A model generated the notes under the pieces. It saw nothing but the letters and a program-made list of their open reading frames with translations, was not told the DNA's origin and ran no database searches. 64,000 nucleotides of DNA from Brevundimonas sp. (GTDB taxonomy: Bacteria; Pseudomonadota; Alphaproteobacteria; Caulobacterales; Caulobacteraceae): the NCBI RefSeq assembly GCF_027484365.1, contig NZ_JAIXTC010000019.1:62001-126000 (forward strand), written 5' to 3'. The translations under genes and the position numbers were made by a program. Positions 34,742-60,625 of the stretch are shown in pieces; position 1 is the stretch's first letter; the number at the start of each line of letters is the position of its first letter.

Positions 34742-34754
34742 TCGATTGATCGGG

Positions 34755-37008: not shown

Positions 37009-37136
37009 GTCTTTTCCCCGGACGACAGGGCGCGTCCCGGTCGTTCTCTGGTATCTACGCGGGCGACGGCTCGTCCCCTCGTGAGGGGACCGGAAGGCCG
37101 GCGCGTATGGCATATGGGGCGTGACGCAGGTGCGCA

Positions 37137-37852: not shown

Positions 37853-37861
37853 GCGGCGCGC

Positions 37862-38431: not shown

Positions 38432-38559
38432 CCTTGCCATGATGGGAAGGTGCACAGGCTGCGATCCCGACGTCTGTGGCGTCCTGACGCAAGGGGTACG
38501 CCGCCCGGCTGCGTATCTGAACGAACGGCTGAATAGCCCGACCAAGGAATTTCTCGCCT

Positions 38560-44999: not shown

Positions 45000-47957
45000 A
45001 TGCGTATGGGTCTGGGTTCAACAGCGCTGTCCGCGCTGCTCCTGGCGTCGGCGACGCCGGTGATCGCGCAAACCGCGGACGCGGTGAGACGCTATGACGT
45101 CGCCGCGGGACCGCTTGATCGCGCACTGACGGCCTTCGCCCAGCAGAGCGGGCAACAGATCCTGTACCCGGCCGCTCTCGTCGCCGGCCGTCGATCGCCG
45201 GGCCTCAGCGGGAGCCATTCGGCCGAGTCCGCCTTGGCGGCGTTGCTCCGCGACACCGGCCTGTCGCATCGGCGGACCCGTCCCAATGTGTTCGTCCTCT
45301 ACGACCCTTCGGCGCGGGCGGACGCGGATGCGGCCGAAGCGACCGAACTTGAGGAAGTGGTCGTTACGGGAAGCCTGATCCGTGGAGCGGGCGATGGCCC
45401 TTCGCCCGTGGTGACTGTGACCCGCGACCAGATGGACCGCGAAGGACGGGCGACGGTCGCCCAACTGCTCGCGAGCCTGCCGCAGAATTTCGGCGGCACC
45501 GCCAACGAGGGCGCACTGAACAATGGCGCCGACCGATCGGGGACCAACTCGACCTTTGCGAACGGCGTGAATCTTCGCGGCCTGGGCAGCGACGCCACCC
45601 TGGTTCTGATCAACGGTCGACGCCTGGCCGGCACCGGGGCCAAGGGTGACTTCGCCGATGTTTCCTCGATCCCCACGGCCGCGATCGCACGCGTCGATGT
45701 TCTGCTCGACGGGGCCTCCGCCCTGTATGGCGCCGACGCCGTGGGGGGCGTGGTGAACATCATCCTGCGTGATGACTACGACGGTGCGGAGACGCGGATT
45801 CGGTTGGGCGACACTTGGGACGGCGCGAGCGGCGAGTATCAGTTCGGACAGACGATCGGCCGGCGATGGACCGGCGGCGGCGCGATGATCACCTATGAAT
45901 ATTACGATCGGGAGGCGCTGGCGGGGTCTAAACGGCGGCTCGCCAGCGACGCGGACCTGCGTTGGCGCGGAGGAACGGATCGGAGGCAATACTATAGCAA
46001 TCCGGGCAACATCGTCGTGTTCGACGCCGCTTCGGGGAGCTACGTTCCAACCTACGCAATCCCGCCGGGGCAGACAGGCGTCGGCCTTCGGCCCGGCGAC
46101 TTTCTTGCCGGGCAAACCAACCTCGAGAACCACCGGGCCGGGGTCAATGTTCTCCCCCGTCAAACCCGGGAGAGCGTCTACGCTGCCGCCCGGCAAGACC
46201 TGGGAGACCGCTTCGAGATCAGCGGCGACGCGCGCTACGGACGACGCAACTACGAGACGGTGTCCTTCCCAATCAGCACCCTGTTGACGGTCACCTCGGC
46301 CAACCCGTTCTTCGTGTCGCCGACCGGCGCACGGTCGCACACCGTCGCCTATTCGTTCCAGAAGGAGATTCCGGCTCCGCGCATCAGTGGCGAGGTGGAA
46401 AGTCTCGGCGCCACCGTGGGCGGCGTGGCTGATCTGTTCGCGGACTGGAAGCTCGACGCCTATGTCGCCTATTCCTCCGAGGAAAGCCGCAACGCAACGG
46501 ATGGCGCGCTACAATCGACCTATCTGCGAGAGGCGCTCGGAGCCGTAGCAGACAATCCGGCCACGCCTTTCAGCGCCGTTCGGGACGGCTATCTGAACCC
46601 CTTTGGCGACGGGCTGATCAGTAACAGAACCGTGCTTGATTTCATCAGCTCCGGCTACACGCGGACCTACAGCCGCACGACCGTCTCATCCGCCAATCTC
46701 CAGGTCGGCGGCACGATTCTCGATCTCCCGGGCGGCCCGTTGCGGCTGGCTGCGGGCCTGGCCTTCCGGGAAGAAACATTCGAGCGCCAGTTCACTGGAT
46801 TCACGTCCGGGAGCGCGCCGGCCGTGGGCGCATCGACGGAAACGAGCCGACAGGTCTCGGCCGCCTTCGCCGAGGTGCGCCTGCCGCTCTTCGGCACCGA
46901 CAACGCTCGCCCGGGATTGGAACGCCTTGAGCTCTCCCTTGCGGCGCGGTTCGAGGACTATGGCGACGTGGGGCAGACGACCAGTCCCAAGGTCGGCGTT
47001 CTCTGGAAGCCCACGAACGAACTGCTCTTCAGAGCCAACTACGGCCGCTCATTTCGCGCGCCCGCCCTGCGCGAGCTTAACGATGCGCCCAGCGCCAGTC
47101 CCTCCATCCTGCCGCGAGGGTCTCAACAGATCCTCTCGATGATCCTCTACGGCGGCAACCCGGATCTTCAGCCCGAGGAAGCCGACACCTGGACCGGCGG
47201 TTTCGAGGTCCGGCCGGAAGCGGTCCCCGGGCTTCAGTTCGGGGTGAACCTTTTTCGAACCGACTTCGACAACAGGATCGGCCAACCGGCGCTGGAGAGC
47301 ATTCTCACGGCCTTGGGCGACCCGTCGCTGGCGCCGTTCGTGCGCACACTCGACCCGACCAACAACGCCGACGATCGGGCGGCAATCCAGGCCATTCTCG
47401 ATCTGCCGACCACGGGTCTTCGAGACCTTTTCCCCGCCACCTCTTACGGCGCGATCGTCGATGCGCGTTACGTCAACACGGCGCGGGTCCAGGTTCAGGG
47501 TGCCGACCTCACCGCCGACTACGGCTTCGATCTCGGCCCGAACACGTTCAACGTGGCGGTGAACATGACCTGGCTGGAGCGTTTCGACGCTCAACCGACA
47601 CCGACATCGCCCACCGTCTCACAGGTCAACCGCCCCAATTTCCCAGTCGGGCTTCGCGGCCGGACCTCGGGCAGTTGGTCGCGCGGATCCTGGACCGTCG
47701 CCCCTTCCCTGAACTACGTCGGATCGTACCAGGACCTCGTCGGTAACAGGATCGGGTCATGGACGACCGCTGATGTGCTGGTCCGATATGCGCCGGAGGA
47801 CGGCTTCCTCGCCGGGACGAAGCTTTCGCTCACGGTCCAGAACCTGTTCGACCGTGATCCCCCATTTTACGACGCGCCCCAAGGCGTGGCCTACGACGCG
47901 GCCAACACCAATGTACTGGGCCGGTTCGTGTCCTTGCAGCTGACCCGGAGCTGGTGA
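45000..47957 (+). CDS. TonB-dependent receptor with STN signalling domain
   Basis: 985-residue outer-membrane transporter. Signal peptide, then an STN domain (about residues 30-102, YDVAAGPLDRALTAFAQQSGQQ), plug (EEVVVTGSLIRGAG, about residue 118) and a 22-strand barrel ending LQLTRSW. The STN talks to FecR. Next to a lasso isopeptidase gene (stop and start share a base), it most likely imports lasso peptide for cleavage or senses it. AGGGGGAAAGAGT precedes the ATG. Confidence 0.92.
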   Translation: MRMGLGSTALSALLLASATPVIAQTADAVRRYDVAAGPLDRALTAFAQQSGQQILYPAALVAGRRSPGLSGSHSAESALAALLRDTGLSHRRTRPNVFVLYDPSARADADAAEATELEEVVVTGSLIRGAGDGPSPVVTVTRDQMDREGRATVAQLLASLPQNFGGTANEGALNNGADRSGTNSTFANGVNLRGLGSDATLVLINGRRLAGTGAKGDFADVSSIPTAAIARVDVLLDGASALYGADAVGGVVNIILRDDYDGAETRIRLGDTWDGASGEYQFGQTIGRRWTGGGAMITYEYYDREALAGSKRRLASDADLRWRGGTDRRQYYSNPGNIVVFDAASGSYVPTYAIPPGQTGVGLRPGDFLAGQTNLENHRAGVNVLPRQTRESVYAAARQDLGDRFEISGDARYGRRNYETVSFPISTLLTVTSANPFFVSPTGARSHTVAYSFQKEIPAPRISGEVESLGATVGGVADLFADWKLDAYVAYSSEESRNATDGALQSTYLREALGAVADNPATPFSAVRDGYLNPFGDGLISNRTVLDFISSGYTRTYSRTTVSSANLQVGGTILDLPGGPLRLAAGLAFREETFERQFTGFTSGSAPAVGASTETSRQVSAAFAEVRLPLFGTDNARPGLERLELSLAARFEDYGDVGQTTSPKVGVLWKPTNELLFRANYGRSFRAPALRELNDAPSASPSILPRGSQQILSMILYGGNPDLQPEEADTWTGGFEVRPEAVPGLQFGVNLFRTDFDNRIGQPALESILTALGDPSLAPFVRTLDPTNNADDRAAIQAILDLPTTGLRDLFPATSYGAIVDARYVNTARVQVQGADLTADYGFDLGPNTFNVAVNMTWLERFDAQPTPTSPTVSQVNRPNFPVGLRGRTSGSWSRGSWTVAPSLNYVGSYQDLVGNRIGSWTTADVLVRYAPEDGFLAGTKLSLTVQNLFDRDPPFYDAPQGVAYDAANTNVLGRFVSLQLTRSW

Positions 47958-50404
47958 TGCGGAGCTCGCTATTGGCGCTCGCCGTGGCGGCGAGCCTGGC
48001 CGGAGTCTGTCCCGCGTCAGCCCAGTCCGGCCGACCGTTCACCGTCGATGACCTCGTCGGACACGAAGACACCGGCACGGTTCGCGTCAGTCCTGACGGA
48101 CGGTGGATCAGCGTCGAGCGACAGGCGGCCTATGATCAGGCCGGCTCCTATGCGCTGTCGACGGCGGTGAATTGGCTGCTGAGCGAACTTGAGGTTCGCC
48201 CCGCCGCGGGTGGCGAGCCGACGGTCCGGCTCGCTTCTTCCGGCCACGACGTCGGCTATGTTTCCGGGCCCTTCTCTCCGGATGGCGCACGGATGGTGGT
48301 TTTCCGCGTCACCGAAAACAGTGTGCGCCTGGGCGTCCTGACGCTCGACACCGGCGCCGTTGATTGGCATCCGTTCACGCCGGAATGGATCCAGTTCGGC
48401 CGGACGGTCGCCTGGCGCTCGCCGACTGAACTGGTTTTCGTGGCTCGGCCCACGGATGATCCGCCGGTGGCGATGCGCGTCGGCTACCAGGCCCAGGCGC
48501 GGATCGAACGGCTGTGGCGTACAGCCGCGAGCGGCCACGGCGCCAGCTCGGTCTACATCCCGAGCGGCAGGCAGCGCGACAGCCGATCTCAGGCCCTGGC
48601 ATCCAATCTTGTCGCTCTCGACGTCGCCAGCGGGCGTTCGCGGGTCTTGGCTTCGGGCGAATGGTTCGACCTTCGACTCTCGCCGGACGGCGGCCACGCG
48701 GCCCTCATTGAGGACGCCGAGGATCTTCAACCCAGTCCCGGCAGGCCATTGAGGGTCGGCGACCCTCTCCGCCGCCGTCGGCTGACGCTCATCGACCTGG
48801 AAACAGGCGCAACCCGGCAGCCGCTGCCGGATGAAGACCTGGCCATGTACCTGCTGTCATGGTCACCGGACTCGGCCCGCCTTCTGGTCTTCGGACGCCC
48901 TCTCGGCGGCGACTTCGACCAGGACGGGCGTTACTGGCTGGTCCCGGCGGACGGTCGCGCCCGACCGCTGGTCATGGGCGAGGACGCGCCCTGGATAGAG
49001 CGGACCTGGGACGGCGTCGCCGTGCCCCTGGCGAGTTGGGACGGCCCCCAACCTGTCGTCCAGGCACGCTCGCCAGCCGGCGCCAGGGTCTGGTTGCGGC
49101 CGGAAGCGGCAGGCGACCTTCGAGTCCCGGTCGTTGAACCGGCCGAACGCCTGGTGTCGCTTCACGGACGCGCGGCGATCCAACGGTCGGACGGCGTCTA
49201 TCGCTTCGGCGGCGACGGCGCCCGCCTCGTCGCCGGGCGGCTCTGGGGCCAGGGTGCGAGTGGCGATGGCGGAAATCCGGAGCGGTGGAACCCCAGCGCG
49301 CTCGAGGCCGGCTCGCACACCGTCGTCGAGGGCGCGTGCCTGTCTCGCCTCGCCGGCGGCGGCCAGACGTGCGTGACGCCGTTGCAACCCGACGAGCGAA
49401 TCCTCGCCGCCGGCCCGGACGCCAGTTTCCTCGTGACGCATTATCTGACCGATCGGGGTGACAGCGGTCTTCGCGTCCACCGGTCGGGCGGCGTTGAAGC
49501 GATCGCTCCCGCGAACGCAGGGTGGCGGGACATCGACTGGGGCCGGATCGTGCCGGTGCCTCACCCGGGCCCGGACGGGCAATCCCTGACCAGCTGGCTG
49601 CTGCAGCCGCCGGGCTTGCCGGAGGGCGCCCGGCCGCCGGTCGTGGTCGTGGTCTATCCCGGCTCCGCGCCGCGCTCGGCGCCGGCGGCCCTTTCGCCGG
49701 GCACGACACAGCTCCAGAACAACCCCGTGGTGCTTGCCGGGGCCGGCTATGCCGTCCTGGTCGTCAGCCTTCCCCTTAAGCCCGGCGGGCCTCCGGCGGC
49801 GGAGGGTCTCGCCGACCGCATCCTCGCGATCGTGGACGAGGCCGGCCGGCGGGGATTGATCGACGCGGATCGCGTCGCCCTGATCGGACACAGTTTCGGC
49901 GGATACGGCGTCCTGAGCGCCGCAACCCAGAGCGATCGGTTCCGCGCCGTGATCGCCTCGAACGGTTATGCGGACCTGAGCCGCTCCATGGAGTTGCCCG
50001 CCTTCTATCGCGTCGCGCCAGACGAGGGCGTTCCGGTCGGCCAGATGGCCGGCTGGGGCGAGACCGGCCAAGGCTCGATCGGCTTTTTCGCACAACGCCC
50101 AGAGGCCTATGTCGAGGCCAGCCCGCTGTACCGTGTGGATGATCTGCGCGCGCCCGTTCTCCTGATCGAGTCGGACCTGGACACGGCAAGGATGGGCTCG
50201 CTTTTCGGCGCACTCTACCGGCTCGACCGGGAAGCGGCCCTCCTCACATATTTCGGAGAGGGCCACACCTATGCGAGTCCGGGAAACCTGCGAGATCTAC
50301 ATGACCGGATTCTCGACTGGCTGGCGCGCTATCTGGGGCCGCCCACGCCGCTCGATCCGCTCAGTCCAGTGCCTGGCCCAGGTCTCCAGGACCGCCAGCA
50401 GTAG
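47957..50404 (+). CDS. Lasso peptide isopeptidase (AtxE2-like S9 family)
   Basis: 815 residues from the ATG at 47957. Signal peptide (ends ASAQS), a beta-propeller half (HEDTGTVRVSPDGRWISVE), then an alpha/beta-hydrolase domain with the Ser nucleophile in GHSFGGYG (about Ser 646), Asp in ESDLDTARMG and His in EGHTYASPG. Proteobacterial lasso clusters pair such enzymes with TonB receptors to open the lasso ring after uptake. Its 3' end overlaps the convergent cyclase gene by 108 bases. Confidence 0.87.
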   Translation: MRSSLLALAVAASLAGVCPASAQSGRPFTVDDLVGHEDTGTVRVSPDGRWISVERQAAYDQAGSYALSTAVNWLLSELEVRPAAGGEPTVRLASSGHDVGYVSGPFSPDGARMVVFRVTENSVRLGVLTLDTGAVDWHPFTPEWIQFGRTVAWRSPTELVFVARPTDDPPVAMRVGYQAQARIERLWRTAASGHGASSVYIPSGRQRDSRSQALASNLVALDVASGRSRVLASGEWFDLRLSPDGGHAALIEDAEDLQPSPGRPLRVGDPLRRRRLTLIDLETGATRQPLPDEDLAMYLLSWSPDSARLLVFGRPLGGDFDQDGRYWLVPADGRARPLVMGEDAPWIERTWDGVAVPLASWDGPQPVVQARSPAGARVWLRPEAAGDLRVPVVEPAERLVSLHGRAAIQRSDGVYRFGGDGARLVAGRLWGQGASGDGGNPERWNPSALEAGSHTVVEGACLSRLAGGGQTCVTPLQPDERILAAGPDASFLVTHYLTDRGDSGLRVHRSGGVEAIAPANAGWRDIDWGRIVPVPHPGPDGQSLTSWLLQPPGLPEGARPPVVVVVYPGSAPRSAPAALSPGTTQLQNNPVVLAGAGYAVLVVSLPLKPGGPPAAEGLADRILAIVDEAGRRGLIDADRVALIGHSFGGYGVLSAATQSDRFRAVIASNGYADLSRSMELPAFYRVAPDEGVPVGQMAGWGETGQGSIGFFAQRPEAYVEASPLYRVDDLRAPVLLIESDLDTARMGSLFGALYRLDREAALLTYFGEGHTYASPGNLRDLHDRILDWLARYLGPPTPLDPLSPVPGPGLQDRQQ

Positions 50405-52054
50405 GGGACGGTTGCTGAGAGGACTCCATACCAGACGCTCCGGCGTCAGTTCGCGCTCCAGATCGACCCGGTCGATAAGGCGGTGTTCACTCAGCAGACC
50501 GTCGAGGAGAAACGGACGGAGCTCGGCGAGGCTGGAGAGGACGACCCGGCCATAAAACTGGCTGAGGTCGCCCTTGTCCCGGCGTTCGAGAATCGAGGGC
50601 GGCAACCGCTCGAAGAAGGCGACGCGAGCCAGTCCCCGATCTCTGACGCCCAGGATCAGACGATCCGCAGGGACCGCCATGACATGCTCGATCACCGGCT
50701 GGGTGAGGAGGGGATGCAGGAGTTGGGCCGCCCTCGCCCGTCGGCAATCGCTCCAGAACAGCTGGCAGTTCGCCAGCCGGAGGATCTGGCCGCGCTTCGC
50801 CGGTGGTATGTCATCGGCGTCGGCGAGCCAGGGATGGCGGCGGCGGACCGGGCTCGAAGGCCGCGGCGGCCAAAGGGCCAGGCCGCCCAAGGTCCAGGCC
50901 GAATGGCGCGTCCAACGTCCGACGTCGGCCCAGTAACGCGGGTCCAGACCACCCAGCCCTTCTCGGCGACGTCGGTCGATGACCACCTGGGGATCCGGAG
51001 CCTGGAAAAATACGGCATCCCCGCCCTGTCCCGTGATCAGGGCGGTGGCTCCGAGGCGGCCGATACGCTGGGCCACGTCCTCGTCGTAAGCTACGTCGAC
51101 GCCATGAAGCGCGGGACGGAAACCCCAGCCGAGGGGCGCGAGCTTCTCCGGCGTGATGGGCGCGACCGGCTTGCGCGCCATCGTAAGGCGCGCACCACTT
51201 TTGTCAGCCGCAGCCTTTGCATAGGCGCGTTCGTCGCCCTCGGCCCAGTCCCCGAAATAATTGACGTAGGACGCCTTGGACCCTGCACCGACGGCCGCAA
51301 GGCTGCTGGAGACGATCGCGGAGTCCAGCCCGCCAGAGATTTCGCCGAGCAGGATCGAATGCCCTTCCGATACGCCGGCCACGGCGCCATCGACCACGCG
51401 GCGTAGGGCGTCGGGCGAGTCGTCCCAGGACCGCCCCCGGCAAGCGTCCGCGGGACGCCACACGGCGTGCGCCTCAAACTGATCACCGACCAGGGCGACG
51501 TCGCCCGGCGTAACCGAGGTTAGTCCACGCAGGGGCGGCCGATCGCTCAACAGACCGGGCTGGTCGGCGATCTCGTCCAACACGGGCCAGTCGATCGCGA
51601 CCGCCTCCGGCAGAAGCAGATCGACCTCGGGCGGCAGTTGATCTGCGGCGACACGAAGCCCCCCGCGACGCCAGGCCAGGCAGTCGATCGCCCCGCTCGG
51701 GTCACGCAGCAGGCCGAGGCGGTCGTCGTCGGTGCCCCAGGCCAGGATGTATCGCCCCCAGCCGGCCCGGACGGCGCTGCGGCCCAGGTCGATCGGACCG
51801 CGGCTGCCGCCAATGACGGCGGACAGGGCCTGATCACGCCAGCGATACTCCCCGATAAGGACATGACGGCGTTGCACGAGACGCACGTTCAGCGGCGAGC
51901 GCGGTCCCAGATAGACCTCCAGGCCTCCCACCGAGATCGCGCATCGCCACCCGACCGCCTGAAGGGCTCCGCGCGCCCGGTCCAGGACGGCGGCGTCTTC
52001 GGCGCTGGGCCGGCTCGTCTGAATGACCAGATACCCGCGATCGGCCCAGGTCAT
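50297..52054 (-). CDS. Lasso peptide macrocyclase (C protein, asparagine synthetase-like)
   Basis: 585 residues from the ATG at 52054, which overlaps the B gene stop (ATGA); a longer frame to 52231 is the shadow of the B gene. N-terminal glutaminase-like domain lacks the catalytic Cys (MTWADRGY start), and the synthetase part has the ATP-pyrophosphatase loop SGGLDS at 240-245. It adenylates the Asp/Glu side chain of the core and closes the ring onto residue 1. Second half: HPLLTQPVIEHVMAVPADR, DKGDLSQFY. Confidence 0.92.
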   Translation of the reverse strand: MTWADRGYLVIQTSRPSAEDAAVLDRARGALQAVGWRCAISVGGLEVYLGPRSPLNVRLVQRRHVLIGEYRWRDQALSAVIGGSRGPIDLGRSAVRAGWGRYILAWGTDDDRLGLLRDPSGAIDCLAWRRGGLRVAADQLPPEVDLLLPEAVAIDWPVLDEIADQPGLLSDRPPLRGLTSVTPGDVALVGDQFEAHAVWRPADACRGRSWDDSPDALRRVVDGAVAGVSEGHSILLGEISGGLDSAIVSSSLAAVGAGSKASYVNYFGDWAEGDERAYAKAAADKSGARLTMARKPVAPITPEKLAPLGWGFRPALHGVDVAYDEDVAQRIGRLGATALITGQGGDAVFFQAPDPQVVIDRRRREGLGGLDPRYWADVGRWTRHSAWTLGGLALWPPRPSSPVRRRHPWLADADDIPPAKRGQILRLANCQLFWSDCRRARAAQLLHPLLTQPVIEHVMAVPADRLILGVRDRGLARVAFFERLPPSILERRDKGDLSQFYGRVVLSSLAELRPFLLDGLLSEHRLIDRVDLERELTPERLVWSPLSNRPLLLAVLETWARHWTERIERRGRPQIARQPVENPVM

Positions 52055-52689
52055 CGGCAATAGATCGGGCTGTAGGCGGTCAGCCGTTCCACATCGTCGT
52101 TCAGACACAGACCGTCGGTCTGAACCCAGCAGTGGGCCATGAACGGGAAGAGCCTCACGCCGAAGACCCAGTCGGCCCGCAGCCCGCGTCGGCGAAGGAA
52201 ACGCATCAGCAACGCCGATCGAACGAGACATTCGCCCTCGATCGGAAGCCAGGGCGCGAGCCGCCAGAAGGTCCGCGCCGCTTCGGCGACGCGGTCTGGC
52301 GTCCGATCATTCCCATCGTCGGCTGCGCCGGCGAGGTAGGCCTCGACCCCGGCCCCCGATCTTATGCGGCGCATCTCAGCCGTGGCGGCCAATGCCGCCC
52401 CCCAATCGAGAAGGCTCGCCGCCCGGGAAGGCCGCCCGTGGATCACGGTCTGTGTCGGCCGGGGCGGCGGCGGCGGCATGCGCGGTCGTGGTCCCTCAGC
52501 CAGAAGTCCGGCCTCAGCCAGGGCTCGCCCGACCATCCCCGCGCCAAAGATCGGGGCGCCGTCCGCGCCGCGGATCAGGTCACCGGCGCCATTGGGCAGG
52601 CAAAGATAGCTGTCGGCGGCCAGGTCGAGCAGGACCATGGCGTCGCCGACATAGGCGACATGCACATCGCCTCTCAGATCAGAGCCCAT
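52051..52689 (-). CDS. Lasso peptide B protein: PqqD-like RRE fused to transglutaminase-type protease
   Basis: 212 residues. N-terminal about 65 residues resemble a PqqD-like leader-binding domain (AMVLLDLAADSYLCLPNGAGDLI); then a Pro-rich linker and the cysteine protease part with Cys154 (GECLVRSALLMRFLRRRG), His186 (AHCWVQTDG) and Asp192. It cuts the leader from the core. Start at the ATG at 52689 because GAAGGA lies seven bases upstream; the frame extends to a TTG at 52704. Between precursor and C gene. Confidence 0.92.
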   Translation of the reverse strand: MGSDLRGDVHVAYVGDAMVLLDLAADSYLCLPNGAGDLIRGADGAPIFGAGMVGRALAEAGLLAEGPRPRMPPPPPRPTQTVIHGRPSRAASLLDWGAALAATAEMRRIRSGAGVEAYLAGAADDGNDRTPDRVAEAARTFWRLAPWLPIEGECLVRSALLMRFLRRRGLRADWVFGVRLFPFMAHCWVQTDGLCLNDDVERLTAYSPIYCR

Positions 52690-52747
52690 CGCCGTATCCT
52701 TCAAGGCGACAAGGCGCCGGCCTCTGGGGCCGACGCCTTGCGACAGG

Positions 52748-53092
52748 TCAGCGGGCTGCGCCGCCCATTTCCCAGCGCTGCACCGGGATCAGCTCCAACT
52801 GGCCTTCCTCGGAGTCAGCCCGCGTCCGCGTTTCGGCCGCGCCCAGGCGGACGACCTCGGCGCGCACCCCGGTGTCTTCGTAGGTGAAGACAGGGTTGAG
52901 CTCGGTCTTCGGGCCGGGACCGGTGGCGCGGGTTTCCTGGCCGGCGGCGCCGAGGCGCTGCAGGCCGATGCGACCGCCATCGTCGTCGTAGTGATAGATC
53001 GGATTGAGTTCGGCCTTCTCGACGCCGACCTCCGCGCGGGTTTGGCTTTCGGCCGATCCGAGGCGGATCAGGCCGGACAGGGTCTTCAACAT
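52748..53092 (-). CDS. Lasso peptide precursor with three tandem leader-core units
   Basis: 114 residues from the ATG at 53092 (AGGAGG seven bases upstream). A 19-residue leader ends LIRLGSAESQTR, with Thr at -2, the proteobacterial lasso leader pattern. Then three core-like blocks start at Ala20, Ala56 and Ala92, each after Thr-Arg and each with Glu at position 9: AEVGVEKAELNPIYHYDDD, ATGPGPKTELNPVFTYED and ADSEEGQLELIPVQRWE. Spacers QRLGAAGQETR and VRLGAAETRTR repeat the leader. Conserved: Ala1, Glu9, Leu10, Pro12, aromatic 16, acid 17. Followed directly by B and C. A precursor role is strongly supported; the number of products is inferred. Confidence 0.88.
   Translation of the reverse strand: MLKTLSGLIRLGSAESQTRAEVGVEKAELNPIYHYDDDGGRIGLQRLGAAGQETRATGPGPKTELNPVFTYEDTGVRAEVVRLGAAETRTRADSEEGQLELIPVQRWEMGGAAR
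52751..53068 (-). repeat. Three 36-residue (108-base) leader-core repeats inside the precursor gene
   Basis: Units at precursor residues 9-44, 45-80 and 81-114, in DNA 52961-53068, 52853-52960 and 52751-52852. Each unit opens x-RLG-x-A-x(3)-T-R and then Ala1 to Glu9 to Leu10-x-Pro12. The first two also share LNP. Spacing is exact; the last unit is two codons shorter because the gene ends. Protein similarity exceeds obvious DNA identity, suggesting old duplications under selection. Confidence 0.88.
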
Positions 53093-53107
53093 GACATTGC
53101 CTCCTAA

Positions 53108-53130
53108 AGCCGGAACGGGATGCTCCGGCT
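53108..53130 (-). promoter_or_regulatory. Stem-loop in the leader RNA just before the precursor's ribosome site
   Basis: 7-base stem AGCCGGA / TCCGGCT with a 9-base loop; the 3' arm ends two bases before the AGGAGG of the precursor gene. It lies in the 73-base gap between the GntR gene stop and the precursor start. Could stabilise the RNA end or modulate translation; function not shown. Confidence 0.45.
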
Positions 53131-53165
53131 GGACAGCAAGTCGTCCAACGCCCTCTATTTTCAAT

Positions 53166-53783
53166 CTATATTTGATCAATACTTTCCGCTGATTTTCGCA
53201 TCATGGCGAACACAGGCTGCGCATGCGCTGCTCGCTCACTGTGGTAGGTCTCGACTACCGGTGAGAGATGATCGAGCCGCGCCTGAGAAAGCAGGCCTTC
53301 CATGCGATCGACGACCTCGGAGGGAAGCGGCGCCACACGCTCCTCAACGATGCGAATCGGCCTTAGCTGCGCCACCGTTCGGCGATGAGCGCGGACAAGA
53401 GCTCCGTTTCCGGACGCCTCGACGAGTTGGGCGAAGAGCCGTTCCAAGCGCTCCTGCGGGGCCCCCGCTTTCTCCGCGACGGGCCAGACGAGGCTGCTCC
53501 CGCAACGGATGAGCGCCCATTGCGCCAATCGCCCGTGGAGCTCGTAAAGTTCAATGATATCCGACGAGCTGGGACTGAGCGCGAAATACCCGCGCCCAGG
53601 TCGATGCTCGATGACGCCCTCGCCGGCTAGCCGCGCGAGCGCCTCGCGTACGGGCGTCGGGCTTAGCCCCAGTTCCTCGGCGACGGCTGTCGTGACCAGC
53701 GGCATGCCCCAGCCGAACCGGCCGGCTCCAGCGAACTGGGTGAGGGCCGTCAAGGCGAGGTGATAGGGATCCCTTATCTTCAC
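53166..53783 (-). CDS. GntR family transcriptional regulator (FCD-like)
   Basis: 205 residues from a GTG at 53783. N-terminal winged helix (MPLVTTAVAEELGLSPTPVREALARLAGEGVIEHRPGRGYF in parts) is plain GntR; the helical C-terminal part resembles FCD ligand domains (LYELHGRLAQWALI). First gene of the minus-strand lasso unit: precursor, B and C follow. A GntR gene beside lasso genes is a recurrent arrangement in related bacteria. A longer frame to 54119 is not supported. Confidence 0.86.
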   Translation of the reverse strand: MKIRDPYHLALTALTQFAGAGRFGWGMPLVTTAVAEELGLSPTPVREALARLAGEGVIEHRPGRGYFALSPSSSDIIELYELHGRLAQWALIRCGSSLVWPVAEKAGAPQERLERLFAQLVEASGNGALVRAHRRTVAQLRPIRIVEERVAPLPSEVVDRMEGLLSQARLDHLSPVVETYHSERAAHAQPVFAMMRKSAESIDQI

Positions 53784-54050
53784 GACGTTTCGCCTTCCGT
53801 CTCCGGAATCGCTACGCCCAGGAAGTCTTTGGCATGGCGGATCATCCCGCTCGTCCCTTGGCGGACGTGGATCGAACGAAAATTCTACAGGTTTCGTTAG
53901 CAACCCGCATGTTGTTTGCGCCTTTCCGCAAGCTTTAAACACCGTTTCCTTGGCGCCTTTCATTTGAAGCGTCGTTGGCGCATTTTTCAACCAGTAGGGG
54001 TTCTGAGGCGTAAGTCCGGCAGCCTCGAGAACGACGAGGAAAGCCGACCG

Positions 54051-54557
54051 ATGGATCGTGCCGAACGCCAGTCCCAGAGCGAAACCCTGTCGGCTGCGCT
54101 TCGCCTGATCCGGACCCATCGCCGGATGAAGACAACCGAGATTGCTCAGGCGATGGGCATGGCCCTTCGATCATACGAACATTTCGAGTCCGGCGGCGGG
54201 CGCGTGAATCTCGAACGAATTCATCGCTTCGCCGAAGCGACGGATTGCGACGCCTACGCGATCCTGGCCGCGCTCGCTCTTGGATCACCGGAGTTCGCCC
54301 TGCGAACCGCCGACAACAAGTTGATGACGATTCTGATGGTCGCTTTGCAAGAGTTCGATGCCGAGGTCGGCGACGTGCTTGGCGAACTCGACGCCCGCAC
54401 GATCATAAACACCTTCACCAAGGCGCTTAAGGATCTGGCCCTGCAGTCCGTGCGCCGCGACAGCGCCGCCAATGCATGGTTGCAGCAAAGGTTGGGAAAG
54501 TTGGTTGCGCCCGGCAACGGCGAGGACGGAGAATCCTCCGGGAATCCGACACCGTAG
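54051..54557 (+). CDS. XRE-type HTH regulator
   Basis: 168 residues from the ATG at 54051 with GAGGA about 10-14 bases upstream. Cro/CI-type helix-turn-helix: LIRTHRRMKTTEIAQAMGM, LRSYEHFESGGGRVNLERI. The C-terminal about 80 residues are helical and unassigned. Position just before the conjugation operon and divergent from the lasso GntR gene suggests control of transfer, or of both regions. Confidence 0.83.
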   Translation: MDRAERQSQSETLSAALRLIRTHRRMKTTEIAQAMGMALRSYEHFESGGGRVNLERIHRFAEATDCDAYAILAALALGSPEFALRTADNKLMTILMVALQEFDAEVGDVLGELDARTIINTFTKALKDLALQSVRRDSAANAWLQQRLGKLVAPGNGEDGESSGNPTP

Positions 54558-54885: not shown

Positions 54886-54949
54886 ATTTCCGGCGGGAGG
54901 CTCGCGGGTCGTCAGCTCTCGGGCCGATCAGGTTTGCTTGGGGCTCTCG

Positions 54950-55576
54950 ATGGAGCCCGCCTTGTTGGACCTCAACCTGATCCTCAGCCTGTCCCAGGCC
55001 TGCGCGCCGCAGGTGGCCCCGGAAACCCTGGCCGCCATCGCCTATGCGGAAAGCCGCTTCAACCCGGTCGCGATCGGGGTGAACCGGGGTCCGCGCCCAT
55101 CCCGGCCGCCGCGTGACGCCGCCGACGCGGCGCGCATCGCCCGCGGCCTGCTGGCGCGCGGGGCGAATCTCGATCTCGGGGTGGCCCAGATCAACAGCGA
55201 CAATCTGGATTGGCTCGGCCTGTCGGTCGAAGCGGCCTTCGACCCGTGCCGCAACCTCGCCGCCGCCGGCGTCGTCCTGCGTGCGGGCTATCGGCCGGCC
55301 GAGGGCGTCGATCGGCAGACGACGCTGAGGGTCGCGCTCTCCCGGTACAACACCGGCCATCCCGAGCGCGGCTTCCGTAACGGCTACGTCGGCCGGGTCG
55401 AGGCCGCCGCCGCGTCCCTGGGCGTCCTGCCCCTGGGGGACGTTCGTCCTGCAACGGACGACAGCCCCGCGCAGCCGGCCACGCCGCAGTCCCCGCCGCC
55501 CGACTGGGACGTCTTCGCACGCGCCCGGATCAGCGCCGTCCTCACCTTCACAGCCGCCCCAGACACGGAGTTCTGA
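54950..55576 (+). CDS. virB1: VirB1-like lytic transglycosylase
   Basis: 208 residues. Catalytic Glu34 in AIAYAESRFNPVAIGVN, then GVAQINSDNLDWLGL and SRYNTGHPERGF, all standard VirB1/SLT motifs. Opens the peptidoglycan for the conjugation channel. No strong signal peptide is visible at the start. First gene of the virB operon; the pilin gene follows one base after its stop. An in-frame TTG at 54938 is an alternative start. Confidence 0.9.
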   Translation: MEPALLDLNLILSLSQACAPQVAPETLAAIAYAESRFNPVAIGVNRGPRPSRPPRDAADAARIARGLLARGANLDLGVAQINSDNLDWLGLSVEAAFDPCRNLAAAGVVLRAGYRPAEGVDRQTTLRVALSRYNTGHPERGFRNGYVGRVEAAAASLGVLPLGDVRPATDDSPAQPATPQSPPPDWDVFARARISAVLTFTAAPDTEF

Positions 55577-55577
55577 G

Positions 55578-55877
55578 ATGACCGCACGCGCGAACGCCCG
55601 CAGGGTCGGCGCCGCCGGCGCTATCGCCCTCGCCGCCAGCCTTCTCGTGGTTCAGCCGGCGCTCGCCTCGGCCAATGTCGAAGGCCTTCTCCAGAACGTC
55701 GTCGACATGCTCACCGGCAATACCGCCCGTCTGTTGGCGGTATTGGCGGTCGTGATCGTCGGCATCCTGTGGATGTTCGGCCTGTTCGACCTGCGCCGGG
55801 CGGCGATCGTCGTGCTCGGCATCGTCGTGGTCTTCGGCGCGGCCGAGATCGTCAACCTCATCACGGGCGGCGCCTGA
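55578..55877 (+). CDS. virB2: VirB2/TrbC-like conjugative pilin
   Basis: 99 residues: long signal-like N-terminus (to ALA, about residue 31), then two hydrophobic helices (LLAVLAVVIVGILWMFGLF, AAIVVLGIVVVFGAAEIV) separated by a short DLRR loop. This is the TrbC/VirB2 pilin shape. Builds the pilus. Stop and next start share a base. Confidence 0.9.
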   Translation: MTARANARRVGAAGAIALAASLLVVQPALASANVEGLLQNVVDMLTGNTARLLAVLAVVIVGILWMFGLFDLRRAAIVVLGIVVVFGAAEIVNLITGGA

Positions 55878-56059
55878 TGACCGTCGCCCCGCCCTGGCTG
55901 TGGATCGGGTCGGCGTCGGCCTTTCTCGCCCTGTGTCTGATGCTCGGCCTGAAGCTGATCTCGCCCAAGCGGTTCGCCCAGATCCTCGCCGGTCTCGGCT
56001 CGGGCCTGGCGATCGGCTTGGCCCTGACGCGCCTGTCGGCGGGAGGGCCCCATGGCTAG
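55877..56059 (+). CDS. Small membrane protein between virB2 and virB3
   Basis: 60 residues with two hydrophobic segments (LWIGSASAFLALCLMLGLKLI and ILAGLGSGLAIGLALT). Starts on the last base of the virB2 stop and overlaps virB3 by 8 bases, so it is translated within the operon. Not part of the standard VirB set; possibly an accessory of the pilin or of VirB3. No family recognised. Confidence 0.65.
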   Translation: MTVAPPWLWIGSASAFLALCLMLGLKLISPKRFAQILAGLGSGLAIGLALTRLSAGGPHG

Positions 56060-56387
56060 CGAACGTCTGACCGAGGATCCGCTGTTCCTGGCCTGCACGC
56101 GGCCGGCGATGATCCTCGGCGTGCCCATGGAGGCGATGGGCGTCAATGTCATCGTGTCGGGCGTCGTCTTCCTCGTCGGCGGCAGCCTGCTTTATCTGCT
56201 CGTCGCCCCGGCCCTGCACCTGGTGTTCCGGGCGATCTGCCGGGCCGACCACAACGCCTTCCGGCTGCTCTTCGTCTATGTCGACACCAAGGGCCGGTCG
56301 CGCAACGCGGCGCTCTGGGGCGGGAGTTCGGCGTCGCCCCTTCCCCTCGTCCGCCGCTATCGTCTGGCGGAGCTGTCCCGTGGCTGA
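56052..56387 (+). CDS. virB3: VirB3-like inner-membrane component
   Basis: 111 residues. Starts with LTEDPLFLACTRPAMILGVP, the VirB3/TrbD opening block, then one or two TM segments (VIVSGVVFLVGGSLLYLLVAPALHLVF in parts) and CRADHNAFRLLFVY. Works with VirB4. Overlaps both neighbours by 8 bases. Confidence 0.9.
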   Translation: MASERLTEDPLFLACTRPAMILGVPMEAMGVNVIVSGVVFLVGGSLLYLLVAPALHLVFRAICRADHNAFRLLFVYVDTKGRSRNAALWGGSSASPLPLVRRYRLAELSRG

Positions 56388-58755
56388 GGGCGGCGTTGCT
56401 CCGGCGCGGCTGCGGCGCGAGGCCGACGCCCGACCGCATCTGCCCTACGCCCGTCACGTCTCGGACCATGTGGTGGCGCTCGACAGCGGCGCCCTGATGA
56501 TGGTGTTTCAGGTCGACGGGGCCAGCTTCGAGACCGCCGACGCCCGCGATCTCAACGACTGGCACGTCAAGCTCAACCAGGCCTGGCGCAATCTCGCCGA
56601 CGACCGTCTGGCGGTCTGGCATCATGTGGTGCGACGCCCGGTCGAGCTGGAGCGGTCGGCCGGCTTCCGCTCGGCCTTCGCCGGCGAGCTCGGCGCCCTC
56701 TACGACGACCGTGTCGCGGGACGGCGGCTCTGGATCAATGAGTTGTTCGTCACCCTCGTCCTGCATCCCGGTCGGGACGCCGGCGACCGCGCCGCGGCGC
56801 TCGCCAAACGCCTGAAGGCGGCGCGCCGCCACGACGCCGAGGTCGAACTCGCCCATCTCCAGCGCATCGAGGAGGCCGGGCGCGATCTGGTTCAGTACCT
56901 CGGGCGCTATGCGCCGCGCCGGCTCGGCCTCTACGAACGCGGCGGCCTGTGGTTCTCCGAGCCGATGGAGGTCATGCGGCTGGTCCTGACCGGGCGCCGG
57001 TCGTCGGTCCCGATCGTGTTCGGCCACCTCGGTTCGGCGGTCTATACCGTGCGCGCCATCTTCGGGCGCGAGACCCTCGAGCTGCGGGACGCCGCCGAGG
57101 CGCGCTACGCCGGCGTCCTCGCCGTCAAGGAGTATCCGGCCACGACCCGGCCGGGACTGTGGGACGAACTGCTGAGCGTCCGGTTCGGCTTCGTGATCAG
57201 CCAGTCCTTCGCCTTCCTGTCCAAGGCCTCGGCCCGCGCGGTGATGGAGCGCAAGCAGAACCAGATGGTCTCGGCGCGGGACCGCGCGGCCTCGCAGATC
57301 ACCGGCCTGTCGGACGCGCTCGACGATCTCGTCAGCAACCGCTTCGTCATGGGCGAGCACCAGGCCTCGATCCTCGTCCATGGCGACACCCCGACGGCAC
57401 TGGCCGAGCACCTGTCCAAGGCCCGCGCCATCCTCGCCGATTCCGGCCTCGTCGTCGCGCGCGAGGACCTCGGCCTCGAGGCGGCCTTCTGGTCCCAGTT
57501 CCCCGGGGCTTTCGCCCGTCGCACCCGGCCGGCGGCGATCACCTCGCGCAATTTCGCGGCCCTGGCGCCGTTCCACGCCCATCCGGTGGGCAAGGCGCGC
57601 GGCAACCACTGGGGCGAGGCCGTCGCGGTGCTCCGCACCACGGCCGGTTCGCCCTTCTGGTTCAACTTCCATGTCGGCGATCTCGGCCACACCTTCATCT
57701 GCGGGCCTTCGGGGTCGGGCAAGACCGTGGTCCAGAACTTCATGCTGGCGCAGTTGGAGCGGTTTGACGCCCAGCAGCTCTTCATCGACAAGGACCGGGG
57801 CGCCGAGATCTTCGTCCGCGCCTGTGGCGGGACCTATCTCGCCCTGCGCAACGGCGAACCGACCGGCTTCGCCCCGTTCAAGGCCCTCGCCCCCAGTCCC
57901 GCCAACCGCGCCTTCCTCGTCCGCCTGGTCCGGACCCTCGTCGCCCGGCCGGACGAGACCCTGACGGTGCCCCAGGCCCGCGCCATCGATCAGGGCGTGG
58001 CCGCGCTGGAGGCCCTGCCGCGAGAGCGGCGATCCATCGCCGCCCTGCGCAGCCTCCTCGGCCAGGGCGACGCCAGCGGCGTGGGCGCGCGGCTGGAGCG
58101 TTGGCAAAGGGGCGGTCCCCTCGGCTGGGTCCTCGACAATGACGAGGACGCCCTCAGCCTGGAGGCCCGCTTCGCCGGCTTCGACATCACCCAGGTCCTC
58201 GACCACGACGAGGTCCGTACGCCAGCGATGTTGTATCTGTTCCACCGCATCGCCGACCGCGTCGACGGTCGTCGCCTCGTCCTCGACATCGACGAGTTCT
58301 GGAAGGTCCTCGGCGACCCGGCCTTCACGGAACTGGCCCAGGATGGGCTCAAGACCTGGCGCAAACAGAACGCCCTGATGGTGTTCGGCACCCAGTCGCC
58401 GGCCGACGCCCTGCGCTCCCCGATCGCCCACGCCATCCTCGAACAGTGCGCGACCAAGATCTTCCTGCCCAACGCCCACGGCCAGGCGCGCGACTATATC
58501 GACGGCTTCGGCCTCACCCAGGAGGAGTTCCGTCTGGTGCGGGAGGTCCTGACCCCGGAGTCGCACCGTTTCCTGGTCAAGCAGGGCCACGACAGCGTGG
58601 TCGTGGAACTGGACCTGAGCGGCATGGACGACGCCCTGGCGGTCCTGTCCGGCCGCACCGAAACCACGGCCCTGCTCGACCGCCTCCGCGCCGAGGTCGG
58701 CGACGACTACGCGCTGTGGCGCGATCCCTTCCATGACCAGAGGAGGTTCCTGTGA
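56380..58755 (+). CDS. virB4: VirB4-type conjugation ATPase
   Basis: 791 residues from a GTG overlapping the virB3 stop. N-terminal CagE/TrbE/VirB domain, Walker A GPSGSGKT at 442-449, Walker B LVLDIDEFWKVL and QSPADALRSPI. Energises pilus assembly and DNA transfer. Very close to the size of VirB4. An in-frame longer reading from 56146 overlaps virB3 and is not used. Confidence 0.95.
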   Translation: MAEGGVAPARLRREADARPHLPYARHVSDHVVALDSGALMMVFQVDGASFETADARDLNDWHVKLNQAWRNLADDRLAVWHHVVRRPVELERSAGFRSAFAGELGALYDDRVAGRRLWINELFVTLVLHPGRDAGDRAAALAKRLKAARRHDAEVELAHLQRIEEAGRDLVQYLGRYAPRRLGLYERGGLWFSEPMEVMRLVLTGRRSSVPIVFGHLGSAVYTVRAIFGRETLELRDAAEARYAGVLAVKEYPATTRPGLWDELLSVRFGFVISQSFAFLSKASARAVMERKQNQMVSARDRAASQITGLSDALDDLVSNRFVMGEHQASILVHGDTPTALAEHLSKARAILADSGLVVAREDLGLEAAFWSQFPGAFARRTRPAAITSRNFAALAPFHAHPVGKARGNHWGEAVAVLRTTAGSPFWFNFHVGDLGHTFICGPSGSGKTVVQNFMLAQLERFDAQQLFIDKDRGAEIFVRACGGTYLALRNGEPTGFAPFKALAPSPANRAFLVRLVRTLVARPDETLTVPQARAIDQGVAALEALPRERRSIAALRSLLGQGDASGVGARLERWQRGGPLGWVLDNDEDALSLEARFAGFDITQVLDHDEVRTPAMLYLFHRIADRVDGRRLVLDIDEFWKVLGDPAFTELAQDGLKTWRKQNALMVFGTQSPADALRSPIAHAILEQCATKIFLPNAHGQARDYIDGFGLTQEEFRLVREVLTPESHRFLVKQGHDSVVVELDLSGMDDALAVLSGRTETTALLDRLRAEVGDDYALWRDPFHDQRRFL

Positions 58756-59480
58756 GAGCCCGCATCCCCTTCGCTGCGGCGGCCGCCGCCCTCGTCCTCG
58801 CCTGCGCGCCGGCCGTCCAGGCGCAGCAGATCGTCCACGACCCCCGGGCCCTGGCCCAGATGGTCGAGGAGGCCCGCACCACCCTGGACCAACTGAGAGC
58901 GCTGCAGACCCAGATCGAGCAGGGCCAACAGCTCTTCGACAGCCTGAACGACCTGTCGGGCGTCAACGCCTTGGCCGCTGAACTCGGCCTGCCGACGGTG
59001 CGCAATCCGCTGCCGGACATGCGCGCCTTGCGCGCCGCGGCCGACGGCGATCTCTCCGCCCTCGGCGACCTCGCCGACCGCGCCGACGCCATCCGCCGCG
59101 ACACCCGGCTCTACACGCCGCCGGCGGGCGATCCGGGTTCAGCGGAAGCCTATTATCGCGACAGCCTCGAACGCGCCGGCGCCCGCACCGCGCGGGATCT
59201 CGCCATCGGCGAAGCCGTCGGCGGCGCGGCGGATCGCCGCCTGCAGGGTCTGGAGACGCTTCGCTCCGCCCTCGACACCGCGCCCAACGCCCGCGCGGTC
59301 ATGGACCTGGAAGCCCGCCTCGCGGCCGAACAGGCCCTGATCCAGAACGAGCAGGTCCGGCTGCAGGGTCTCGCCCTGACCCAGGCGGCCGAGGCGCGGC
59401 TGGAGGAGCAGCGCGCCCGGGAACGGGCCGAGGCCGCCCGGGCGGCCCGCATGGATGTCTACGAACGGGCGTTCCGGTGA
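58752..59480 (+). CDS. virB5: VirB5/TrbJ-like minor pilus protein
   Basis: 242 residues. Signal peptide (ends AVQAQ), then coiled-coil helices rich in Gln/Ala/Glu (VEEARTTLDQLRALQTQIEQ). This is the TrbJ/VirB5 pattern. Pilus tip adhesin in relatives. GTG start overlapping the virB4 stop by 4 bases; overlaps the next gene by 4. Confidence 0.9.
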   Translation: MRARIPFAAAAAALVLACAPAVQAQQIVHDPRALAQMVEEARTTLDQLRALQTQIEQGQQLFDSLNDLSGVNALAAELGLPTVRNPLPDMRALRAAADGDLSALGDLADRADAIRRDTRLYTPPAGDPGSAEAYYRDSLERAGARTARDLAIGEAVGGAADRRLQGLETLRSALDTAPNARAVMDLEARLAAEQALIQNEQVRLQGLALTQAAEARLEEQRARERAEAARAARMDVYERAFR

Positions 59481-59692
59481 AACGGTCCGCGCTGCTCGTC
59501 GCTCTCGGCCTCGTCGGCTGCGGGGCGACCGACCGGACCGCTGAAGACTTCGCCGCCGATCCCGAAGCGGCCGAAGCGATCGTGGCGGCATGCGACGCCG
59601 GCCGCACCAACGACGAATGCGAGGCGGCGCGGCGCGGTCTGGCCGACGCGCGGCGCGAGGCGCGGATGCGCGCCTATGAGCGGGCCTTCTGA
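59477..59692 (+). CDS. eexN: EexN-like entry-exclusion lipoprotein
   Basis: 71 residues with a lipobox LVGCG (Cys at 15) and the EexN spacing of two further Cys (AACDAGRTNDEC), then a helical Ala/Arg tail. EexN blocks entry of a second related element. Placed between VirB5 and VirB6 genes, the usual site. Overlap of 4 bases with virB5. Confidence 0.82.
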   Translation: MKRSALLVALGLVGCGATDRTAEDFAADPEAAEAIVAACDAGRTNDECEAARRGLADARREARMRAYERAF

Positions 59693-59703
59693 GGAACCCG
59701 ACG

Positions 59704-60624
59704 ATGAGCTTTCGCGTCTTCGAGCCCAGCTACGACTTCATCGACGAACGGCTCAACGTCTTCCTCGGCGACCGTCTGTCGTCGGTGATCGCCGAGGTCG
59801 AGGGACCGCTGCGCATCGCCCTGGTCCTCTATGTCGTGCTCTATGGCGTCGCCATCCTGAGGGGCGCGATCAGCGAACCGGTGATGGATTTCGCGGTCCG
59901 GTCGCTGAAGCTGGCCTTCCTGTATTTGCTGGCGACCACGGCCGCCTATTCGACCTTCGTCACCGAGCCGCTGTTCACCGGCCTGCCCAACGCCCTGACC
60001 CGGGCCGTCAGCGGCGCGGACACGCCCAGCGTCGGCGCGGCCTTCGACCAGTTCTTCGCCTATGCGGCCTGGCTGGGCGAGGACATCTCGCGCGAAGGCT
60101 CGGCCTTCAATCCCGGTCCCTGGGTGGTTTCGGCCGCCGTCTTCATCATCGGCGCCCTGGCCGCCGCCCTCGGGTTCGGCGTGGTGCTGGTGGCCAAACT
60201 GGCTCTGGCGCTGCTCGTCACCCTCGGCCCCATCTTCATCGCCTGCGCCCTGTTCGACGCCACCCGCCGCTTCTTCTTCGGCTGGCTCAGCCAGGCGGTG
60301 AACTATCTCGTCCTGTTCGCCCTGATCATCGTCATCTTCCAGCTGGTCCTGTCGCTCGTGCGCGACCAGTGGGGCGCGATCCAGGGAGCCGACCCGATGA
60401 TCGGCGGGCTGATCTTCATCGCCCTGTGCCTGCTCGGGGCGATCTTCTTTCTGCAGACCCCGGCCATCGCCGCCGGCATCGCGGGCGGCGCCAGCGCCGG
60501 CCTCGCCGACTTCGCCAACGCCGCGGCCCTGGGCGGGAGCGGCTCGGGCCGCTCCCAAGGTCCGCAAGAAGCCAGCCGCCAGCCGCCCAGGGGCGGCGGC
60601 ACCATCCGACCGAGAGGCGCCTGA
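59704..60624 (+). CDS. virB6: VirB6/TrbL-like polytopic membrane protein
   Basis: 306 residues with about six TM helices (ALVLYVVLYGVAILRGA, AFLYLLATTAAYSTF, FIIGALAAALGFGVVLVAK, LVTLGPIFIACALFDA, LVLFALIIVIFQLVL). The TLGPIFIACALF loop is VirB6-like. Inner-membrane channel part. Gly/Ser/Arg-rich tail. Confidence 0.9.
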   Translation: MSFRVFEPSYDFIDERLNVFLGDRLSSVIAEVEGPLRIALVLYVVLYGVAILRGAISEPVMDFAVRSLKLAFLYLLATTAAYSTFVTEPLFTGLPNALTRAVSGADTPSVGAAFDQFFAYAAWLGEDISREGSAFNPGPWVVSAAVFIIGALAAALGFGVVLVAKLALALLVTLGPIFIACALFDATRRFFFGWLSQAVNYLVLFALIIVIFQLVLSLVRDQWGAIQGADPMIGGLIFIALCLLGAIFFLQTPAIAAGIAGGASAGLADFANAAALGGSGSGRSQGPQEASRQPPRGGGTIRPRGA

Positions 60625-60625
60625 C

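What the first reader, a model, noticed from the sequence alone, without database searches (positions are those of the whole stretch)
52748..53092. One lasso precursor with three leader-core units
Seen: the 114-residue product repeats at exactly 36 residues the pattern RLG-x-A-x(3)-T-R followed by a block that starts with Ala and has Glu at position 9. Three blocks share Ala1, Glu9, Leu10, Pro12, an aromatic at 16 and an acid at 17. Known: lasso precursors usually have one leader, with Thr at -2, and one core whose residue 1 is joined to Asp/Glu at 7-9; Ala1 rings exist. Inference: B and C could cut and cyclise each block, giving three different lassos with nine-residue rings from one gene. 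How the C-terminal tail of cores 1 and 2 is freed from the next leader is unexplained and would need an extra cut, perhaps near the Gly at position 20.
Basis: partly seen in the sequence, partly recalled or inferred. Interest (0 to 1): 0.94.

Follow-up and report, generated by a model that had tools for sequence, protein, structure and literature searches.

The report
One gene encoding three lasso peptides
A bacterial gene (genus likely Brevundimonas) carries three complete guide-plus-peptide blocks in one protein chain, beside genes resembling the cutting and ring-closing enzymes of lasso peptides, so it likely yields three different knotted peptides, where lasso precursors generally carry one.

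Summary
Confirmed and extended. The 114-residue product (53092-52748, minus strand) repeats at exactly 36 residues; each unit has the leader motif LGxAxxxTR and a core with Ala1, Glu9, Leu10, Pro12 and an aromatic at 16. Directly downstream lie a lasso B protein (RRE plus cysteine protease) and a cyclase-like C; an isopeptidase-like gene and a TonB receptor converge on them. It is not a one-off: 68 distinct tandem sequences (63 complete) turned up in related genomes and public protein collections, with two or three units each, and nearly all keep Glu9 in every unit. B and C of the tandem loci form one clade. Its sister has two separate single-core genes, 12 nt apart and in frame, so the tandem gene likely arose by fusion of neighbours. 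Most likely B cuts after each Thr-Arg and C closes each Ala1-Glu9 ring; the same cuts would free the upstream lassos with the next leader as tail, so no extra protease is required. Products are not shown. Ten full-text searches of an open-access library that lacks most subscription journals gave no description of tandem leader-core lasso precursors that I recognised.

The parts
52748..53092 (-). three-unit lasso precursor gene (A), 114 aa
   Evidence: 36-residue period; homologs
53100..53105 (-). Shine-Dalgarno AGGAGG, 7 nt before the ATG
53036..53092 (-). leader 1 (aa 1-19, ends ..RLGSAESQTR)
52958..53035 (-). core 1 and linker (aa 20-45), predicted ring Ala1-Glu9
52928..52957 (-). internal leader 2 (aa 46-55, RLGAAGQETR); predicted also to be the tail of lasso 1
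52850..52927 (-). core 2 and linker (aa 56-81), predicted ring Ala1-Glu9
52820..52849 (-). internal leader 3 (aa 82-91, RLGAAETRTR); predicted also to be the tail of lasso 2
52751..52819 (-). core 3 (aa 92-114), predicted ring Ala1-Glu9, ends at the protein's C-terminus
52051..52704 (-). B protein: likely N-terminal RRE plus C-terminal transglutaminase-like cysteine protease (leader peptidase)
50297..52231 (-). C protein: asparagine-synthetase-like lasso cyclase; the likelier start is 52054, where ATGA overlaps the B stop
   Evidence: Pfam PF00733 E 3.3e-15; overlap
47954..50404 (+). S9-family peptidase, likely lasso isopeptidase (AtxE2-like)
   Evidence: NF033523 E 3e-21, 75.8 bits, below cut-off 400; PDB AtxE2 5txc E 2.7e-4, behind another S9 peptidase 8wt1 E 2.6e-11
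45000..47957 (+). TonB-dependent receptor of the cluster
   Evidence: Pfam PF00593, PF07715, PF07660; found in 18 of 19 other tandem loci
53166..54119 (-). GntR-type regulator beside the precursor (start mechanical)
   Evidence: Pfam PF00392; 19 of 19 other tandem loci, 68 of 76 other loci read
53916..54557 (+). divergent helix-turn-helix regulator (start mechanical)
   Evidence: weak HTH match, PF13560 E 2.5e-5, just under its cut-off; 19 of 19 other tandem loci, 68 of 76 other loci read

Best explanation
This gene encodes one chain of three leader-core units, by motif and neighbours a lasso-peptide precursor, and each unit is predicted to be cut after Thr-Arg by the B protein and closed into an Ala1-Glu9 ring by the cyclase C, likely giving three different lasso peptides. 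Shown by sequence: three units, intact leader and core motifs in each, adjacent B and C genes, and conservation of the tandem architecture across many genomes. Inferred: the RRE of B binds each internal leader just as it binds the N-terminal one; its protease domain cuts at each TR/A bond; C uses each new Ala N-terminus. The cut at the next TR/A bond also ends the previous unit, so lasso 1 and lasso 2 would leave as 36-residue peptides whose tails are the spent next leader, later trimmed by ordinary carboxypeptidases up to the lower steric lock. No extra protease is needed. The tandem gene likely arose when the stop codon between two neighbouring single-core genes was lost, with later gain (or loss) of a middle unit.
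For: Repeat and motif. Enzymes. Breadth: 68 distinct tandem sequences, 63 of them complete. Gly-8 and Thr-2 are required by the search pattern; beyond it, Ala-6 and Arg-1 are 68 of 68 in first and in last units, Glu9 68/68, 5/5 and 66/68, position 16 Tyr in 68/68 first and 5/5 middle units, and Trp (55) or Tyr (11) in last units, two being truncated. Last leaders keep V/I/L/M/A at -12 (67 of 68) and Leu/Ile/Val/Met at -9 (68 of 68). In the window's genus, 20 of 25 close-clade cyclase loci have open tandem precursors, 1 has one with its first leader out of frame, 2 have none found, 2 end at contig edges; 0 of 75 other fetched cyclase loci have one. B+C tree (FastTree, midpoint root): the 20 tandem loci plus L059 and L060 form one clade (support 0.955), sister (0.973) to two loci with separate single-core genes, there 12 nt apart and in the same frame. 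Purifying selection: pooled pN/pS within groups (18 of 20 tandem genes) 0.40 (ring) and 0.12 (residues 10-17) for the first core, 0.29 and 0.20 for the last, 0.23 for the last leader, 0.55 for the first leader; ring of the middle core 0.00. Tail extensions of lasso precursors are tolerated for astexin-1 and pandonodin, and carboxypeptidases trim tails (PMC13352647 passages; PMC8498205 section 5).
Confidence: 0.68

Rival explanations
1. All units mature, but the upstream cores are released by a second, dedicated cut after Arg22 (GxR/A-[DE]), giving about 22-residue lassos like those of stand-alone genes.
For: Arg22 in 35 of 48 period-36 units, often followed by Ala-Asp/Glu as at the TR/A-D/E junction; Gly20 43 of 43 in the period-36 set; the sister clade's single cores are 22 and 23 aa. 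The S9 peptidase of the cluster cannot be excluded as a further trimming enzyme.
Against: The site is missing in the groups with linkers KAGVGSE, EAGSG, DPS and DASTTQ, some of which are in loci with the same cluster genes; no second leader-type protease was recognised among the cluster genes scanned; Gly20 is also in last cores.
Confidence: 0.2
2. Only one unit, most likely the last one with a free C-terminus, becomes a lasso; the upstream units act as an enlarged leader that binds B.
For: Known precursors generally have one leader and one core (PMC13352647 section 15 part 1); tail extension often lowers yield.
Against: First units keep Glu9 and Tyr16 in 68 of 68 sequences and Ala1 (66) or Gly1 (2); first cores are under purifying selection; the sister clade has the two cores as separate genes, each with its own start.
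Confidence: 0.1
3. Recent tandem duplication without function: one block works and the copies are drifting or were misassembled.
For: Tandem duplications are common (recalled); one homolog has a last core with Lys9 (P0017), and one locus has its first leader out of frame (L060); in the L053/L054 type the first and last units lie near each other in the unit tree.
Against: Elsewhere in the unit tree (weak supports) first and last units fall into different groups; the architecture is in 20 genomes of the genus and in another genus (G156); third codon positions have diverged while motifs in all units are kept.
Confidence: 0.02

Closest known systems
Caulosegnin I-III, caulonodin and astexin-2/-3 clusters (alphaproteobacterial lasso clusters with several precursors)
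   Same: One set of enzymes serving several precursors (PMC13352647 passage; PMC7549694 passage); isopeptidase gene in clusters without ABC transporter; Thr at the penultimate leader position; caulosegnin rings of 8 and 9 residues. Ala1 rings in caulonodins are recalled; here I saw only a reference title naming unprecedented N-terminal residues.
   Different: There the precursors are separate peptides from separate genes, each with one leader and one core (layout partly recalled); here two or three leader-core units are one reading frame with internal leaders.
Two adjacent single-core precursor genes of the sister clade (loci L069, L070)
   Same: Same leader motif, Ala1/Glu9 cores, aromatic 16 (Phe in gene 1, Trp in gene 2; tandem first units have Tyr, most last units Trp), nearest B and C in the tree.
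   Different: Separate genes with a stop codon and a 12-nt gap; not fused.
Multi-core RiPP precursors of other classes (cyanobactins, plant RiPPs, pheganomycin, graspetides such as plesiocin)
   Same: Several cores in one precursor (PMC10349150 passage; PMC9484694 passage; PMC13003496 passages).
   Different: Other chemistry and enzymes; here every unit has its own lasso-type leader motif and a free N-terminus must be made for each ring.
Long-tailed lassos: pandonodin and astexin-1 fusion proteins
   Same: Lasso closure tolerates a long C-terminal extension.
   Different: Natural or engineered tails, not a following leader-core unit.

Membership tests
lasso peptide biosynthetic cluster | precursor with leader ending in Thr at -2 | tested here: met
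   T-R at -2/-1 before each of the three cores
lasso peptide biosynthetic cluster | core with Asp/Glu at 7-9 able to close a ring with residue 1 | tested here: met
   Ala1 and Glu9 in all three units; 130 of 131 units of the 63 complete tandem sequences, window included, have Glu9
lasso peptide biosynthetic cluster | B2 leader peptidase (transglutaminase-like) | tested here: met
   NF033537 84 bits vs cut-off 33; PF13471 75.4 bits vs 26
lasso peptide biosynthetic cluster | B1 / RRE domain that binds the leader | tested here: inconclusive
lasso peptide biosynthetic cluster | asparagine-synthetase-like cyclase C | tested here: met
   PF00733 57 bits vs 21; SGGLDS in the sequence; but NCBIfam NF033535 only 19.4 bits vs 525
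lasso peptide biosynthetic cluster | threaded product | not testable with these tools
   needs mass spectrometry, NMR or protease tests
lasso peptide biosynthetic cluster | usual (not strictly defining) layout: one leader and one core per precursor | tested here: not met
   three leader-core units; usual layout from PMC13352647 section 15
AtxE2-type lasso isopeptidase | score over the NCBIfam NF033523 cut-off | tested here: not met
   75.8 bits vs 400, so it is called only AtxE2-like
AtxE2-type lasso isopeptidase | fold of AtxE2 / SpI-IsoP | tested here: inconclusive
   AtxE2 5txe is rank 7 and SpI-IsoP rank 21 among many S9 peptidases, 8wt1 being first; model mean pLDDT 69.7
multi-core RiPP precursor (general) | two or more cores, each with its own recognition sequence, in one chain | tested here: met
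   (by sequence; processing not shown)

The most novel reading that the evidence does not exclude
A lasso polyprotein: one chain is cut by one leader peptidase at each internal Thr-Arg/Ala bond, so that every internal leader has two jobs, guiding the enzymes to the next core and then staying as the C-terminal tail of the lasso before it. Fusion of neighbouring genes by loss of a stop codon turned a set of single lasso genes into a fixed-ratio set of two or three different lassos across Brevundimonas.
Probability: 0.4. Interest if true: 0.85.

Novelty: new variant of a known kind. Interest (0 to 1): 0.74.

Why it matters
Lasso precursors are described as generally one short leader and one core (PMC13352647). 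A natural family in which several lassos share one chain would show that the enzymes accept internal leaders and very long tails. It would fix the ratio of different lassos made by one operon and offer a natural template for multi-lasso or lasso-tagged protein engineering. It also gives a before-and-after view of a gene fusion: in-frame neighbours 12 nt apart in the sister clade and the fused form in its relatives. Genome-mining tools that expect one short precursor could miss or miscount such genes; the names given to homologs, where any, are 'hypothetical protein' or 'Uncharacterized protein'.

Tried and rejected
Misassembly as the cause of the repeat: rejected, since the frame has a clear SD and start and 19 other genomes of the genus carry tandem precursors. 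Beads-on-a-string product (several lassos still joined): rejected by reasoning, since each ring needs a free Ala1, hence a cut in front of every core. Cyanobactin-type paired N- and C-terminal proteases: no second RiPP protease was recognised among the seven cluster proteins scanned. Plasmid origin: no close cyclase in the plasmid collection (3 of 72,556 records matched at E 1e-20, all under 35 percent identity). Phage and viral collections were not searched. Class-wide survey with NF033537: 33 of 385 genomes had B2; among the 30 loci returned only the window's own has a tandem, but my motif found few precursors of any kind there, so this is weak. Precursor profile over the class: 1 of 385 genomes, the window's own. 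PDB sequence search with C: nothing. The isopeptidase model was too poor (mean pLDDT 69.7) to say more than S9 fold. Whether three units are ancestral or arose twice is unresolved: three-unit loci sit in two places of the B+C tree, and middle units group only weakly. A promoter/terminator scan of 50200-54200 found nothing useful.

Limits of counts: I counted 104 rows as 101 places (one cyclase in two rows, one broken gene in three); 25 are the close clade, and I fetched 75 of the other 76 (the broken gene in G062 left out). The tree used 73 of 98 loci (those with at least 250 aligned residues). In 34 of the 75 other loci my motif found no precursor at all, so separate genes are shown for 41 only. 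One search scored only the 7996 candidates sharing most words. The 68 tandem sequences include 5 partial or odd ones; P0015, counted as two-unit, looks like a three-unit sequence cut by its start call. The G156 precursor is not among the 68. pN/pS values are uncorrected proportions, the pairs are not independent, and 2 of 20 tandem genes (L064, L066) were left out. Ten paper searches (the last found no paper; two searches listed 40 of 346 and 15 of 417) gave no paper that I recognised as describing tandem leader-core lasso precursors. I looked at listings, at passages of eight papers, at section 5 of PMC8498205 and at part 1 of 5 of section 15 of PMC13352647.

Full report
What is there. On the minus strand, 53092-52748, lies a 114-codon gene with a good ribosome-binding site whose product is three leader-core units at an exact period of 36 residues. 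Each unit has the leader motif RLGxAxxxTR, and a core with Ala1, Glu9, Leu10, Pro12, an aromatic at 16 and an acid at 17. The 36-residue self-match scores 112 against a maximum of 19 in 5000 shuffles. The strict unit pattern occurs nowhere else in six frames of the window. The genus is inferred to be Brevundimonas: two genomes of the same genus hold contigs of the same lengths as named contigs of B. diminuta 470-4 and B. bullata HAMBI_262.

It is a family. Protein searches and genome loci gave 84 distinct precursor-like sequences, 68 of them tandem; 63 of these are complete. The units are two or three; none has more, although the search length limits would have allowed it. Glu9 is kept in 68/68 first, 5/5 middle and 66/68 last units; position 16 is Tyr in all first and middle units and mostly Trp in last units. 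Periods are 36 (48 times), 34 (13), 32 (7), 35 (4) and one odd 48. Apart from that one, the length changes lie in the 3-7 residues between core residue 17 and leader residue -12. Within groups of related genes the pooled pN/pS is below 1 for every part measured; the single ratios near or above 1 are told in the Against line.

Where it came from. In 131 genomes of the window's genus, cyclase matches fall into a close clade (51-100 percent identity, 25 places including the window) and others (at most 44 percent). Of the 25, 20 have an open tandem precursor, one (L060) has a tandem whose first leader is out of frame, two (L052, L059) have no precursor in the stretch read, and two end at a contig edge. 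Of 75 other fetched loci none has a tandem; 41 have one to three separate single-core genes, and in 34 my motif found none. In a midpoint-rooted tree of B plus the first part of C the tandem loci form one clade (20 of its 22 leaves, support 0.955), whose sister (support 0.973) has two separate single-core genes. In that sister the two genes are 12 nt apart and in the same frame; in the other clusters listed, neighbouring precursor genes are 58-225 nt apart. The first gene has Phe16 and the second Trp16, like the Tyr16 and Trp16 of first and last tandem units; the order Tyr16 then Trp16 is also seen in many other single-core pairs (sequences), so it likely predates the fusion. Loss of one stop codon would fuse the pair; the 36-residue period then needs a later shortening, since the sister pair would give about 47. 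Three-unit genes occur in two places of the tree (window and L046; L062-L066). Their middle units resemble each other and the first units of P0022, P0025 and P0029, but with weak support.

How it likely works. B would bind each leader through its RRE and cut after Thr-Arg, and C would close Ala1 onto Glu9 (B and C roles from PMC5067487 passages, and PMC13352647 section 15). Because every internal leader is followed by a TR/A site, the cut that opens unit 2 also ends unit 1. Lasso 1 would therefore carry the spent leader 2 as its tail. Long tails and fused proteins are tolerated by astexin-1 and pandonodin, though tail additions typically lower yield, and tails are trimmed by carboxypeptidases up to the lower lock. 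The alternative is a second cut after Arg22: Arg22 is in 35 of 48 period-36 units, and R-A-[DE] there resembles the TR/A-[DE] junction, but whole groups lack it.

Range. A profile of the tandem precursor finds 16 of 398 genomes of the order at E 0.001. The match covers both units in six of these, window included, one of them from another genus of the same family (G156); the weaker ones are single-core genes where I read them. It finds only the window's own genome among 385 genomes of the class.

Novelty. Multi-core precursors are known in other RiPP classes, and several precursors per lasso cluster are known. Tandem leader-core lasso precursors did not appear in ten full-text searches or in the passages read of eight papers. 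The library lacks most subscription journals, so I claim only that I did not find it. I therefore call it a new variant of a known kind.

Noticed in passing
window 54938-62324: A conjugation-type T4SS block (SLT transglycosylase, VirB2, VirB3, VirB4, T4SS/VirB5-type, VirB6/TrbL, VirB8, CagX/VirB9) lies directly beside the lasso cluster. The transglycosylase is near the cluster in 19 of 19 other tandem loci and in 16 of 76 other loci, where only about 3 kb upstream was read, so the cluster may travel with an integrative conjugative element.
   Followed up: partly
window 29754-41501: Heavy-metal block: P-type ATPase with YHS and HMBD domains, multicopper oxidase and CopB.
   Followed up: no
L052: Region on a contig of the same length as one of Brevundimonas diminuta 470-4: cyclase (lacking its first residues), isopeptidase-like gene and TonB receptor matched, but no B or precursor; a T4SS transglycosylase match lies just upstream of C. 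It looks like a decayed cluster.
   Followed up: partly
L059 (G010, second cluster): B and C of the tandem clade with no precursor, isopeptidase or TonB receptor found in the 15 kb read, in a genome that has another, complete tandem cluster (L053).
   Followed up: partly
P0023: An 86-aa homolog of the three-unit precursor in which the internal leader between cores 1 and 2 is missing, giving a period of 48; deletion variant or assembly error.
   Followed up: no
L060, L067: First leader of a tandem precursor out of frame (L060) and a cyclase split over two frames (L067); some tandem clusters may be decaying or mis-sequenced.
   Followed up: no
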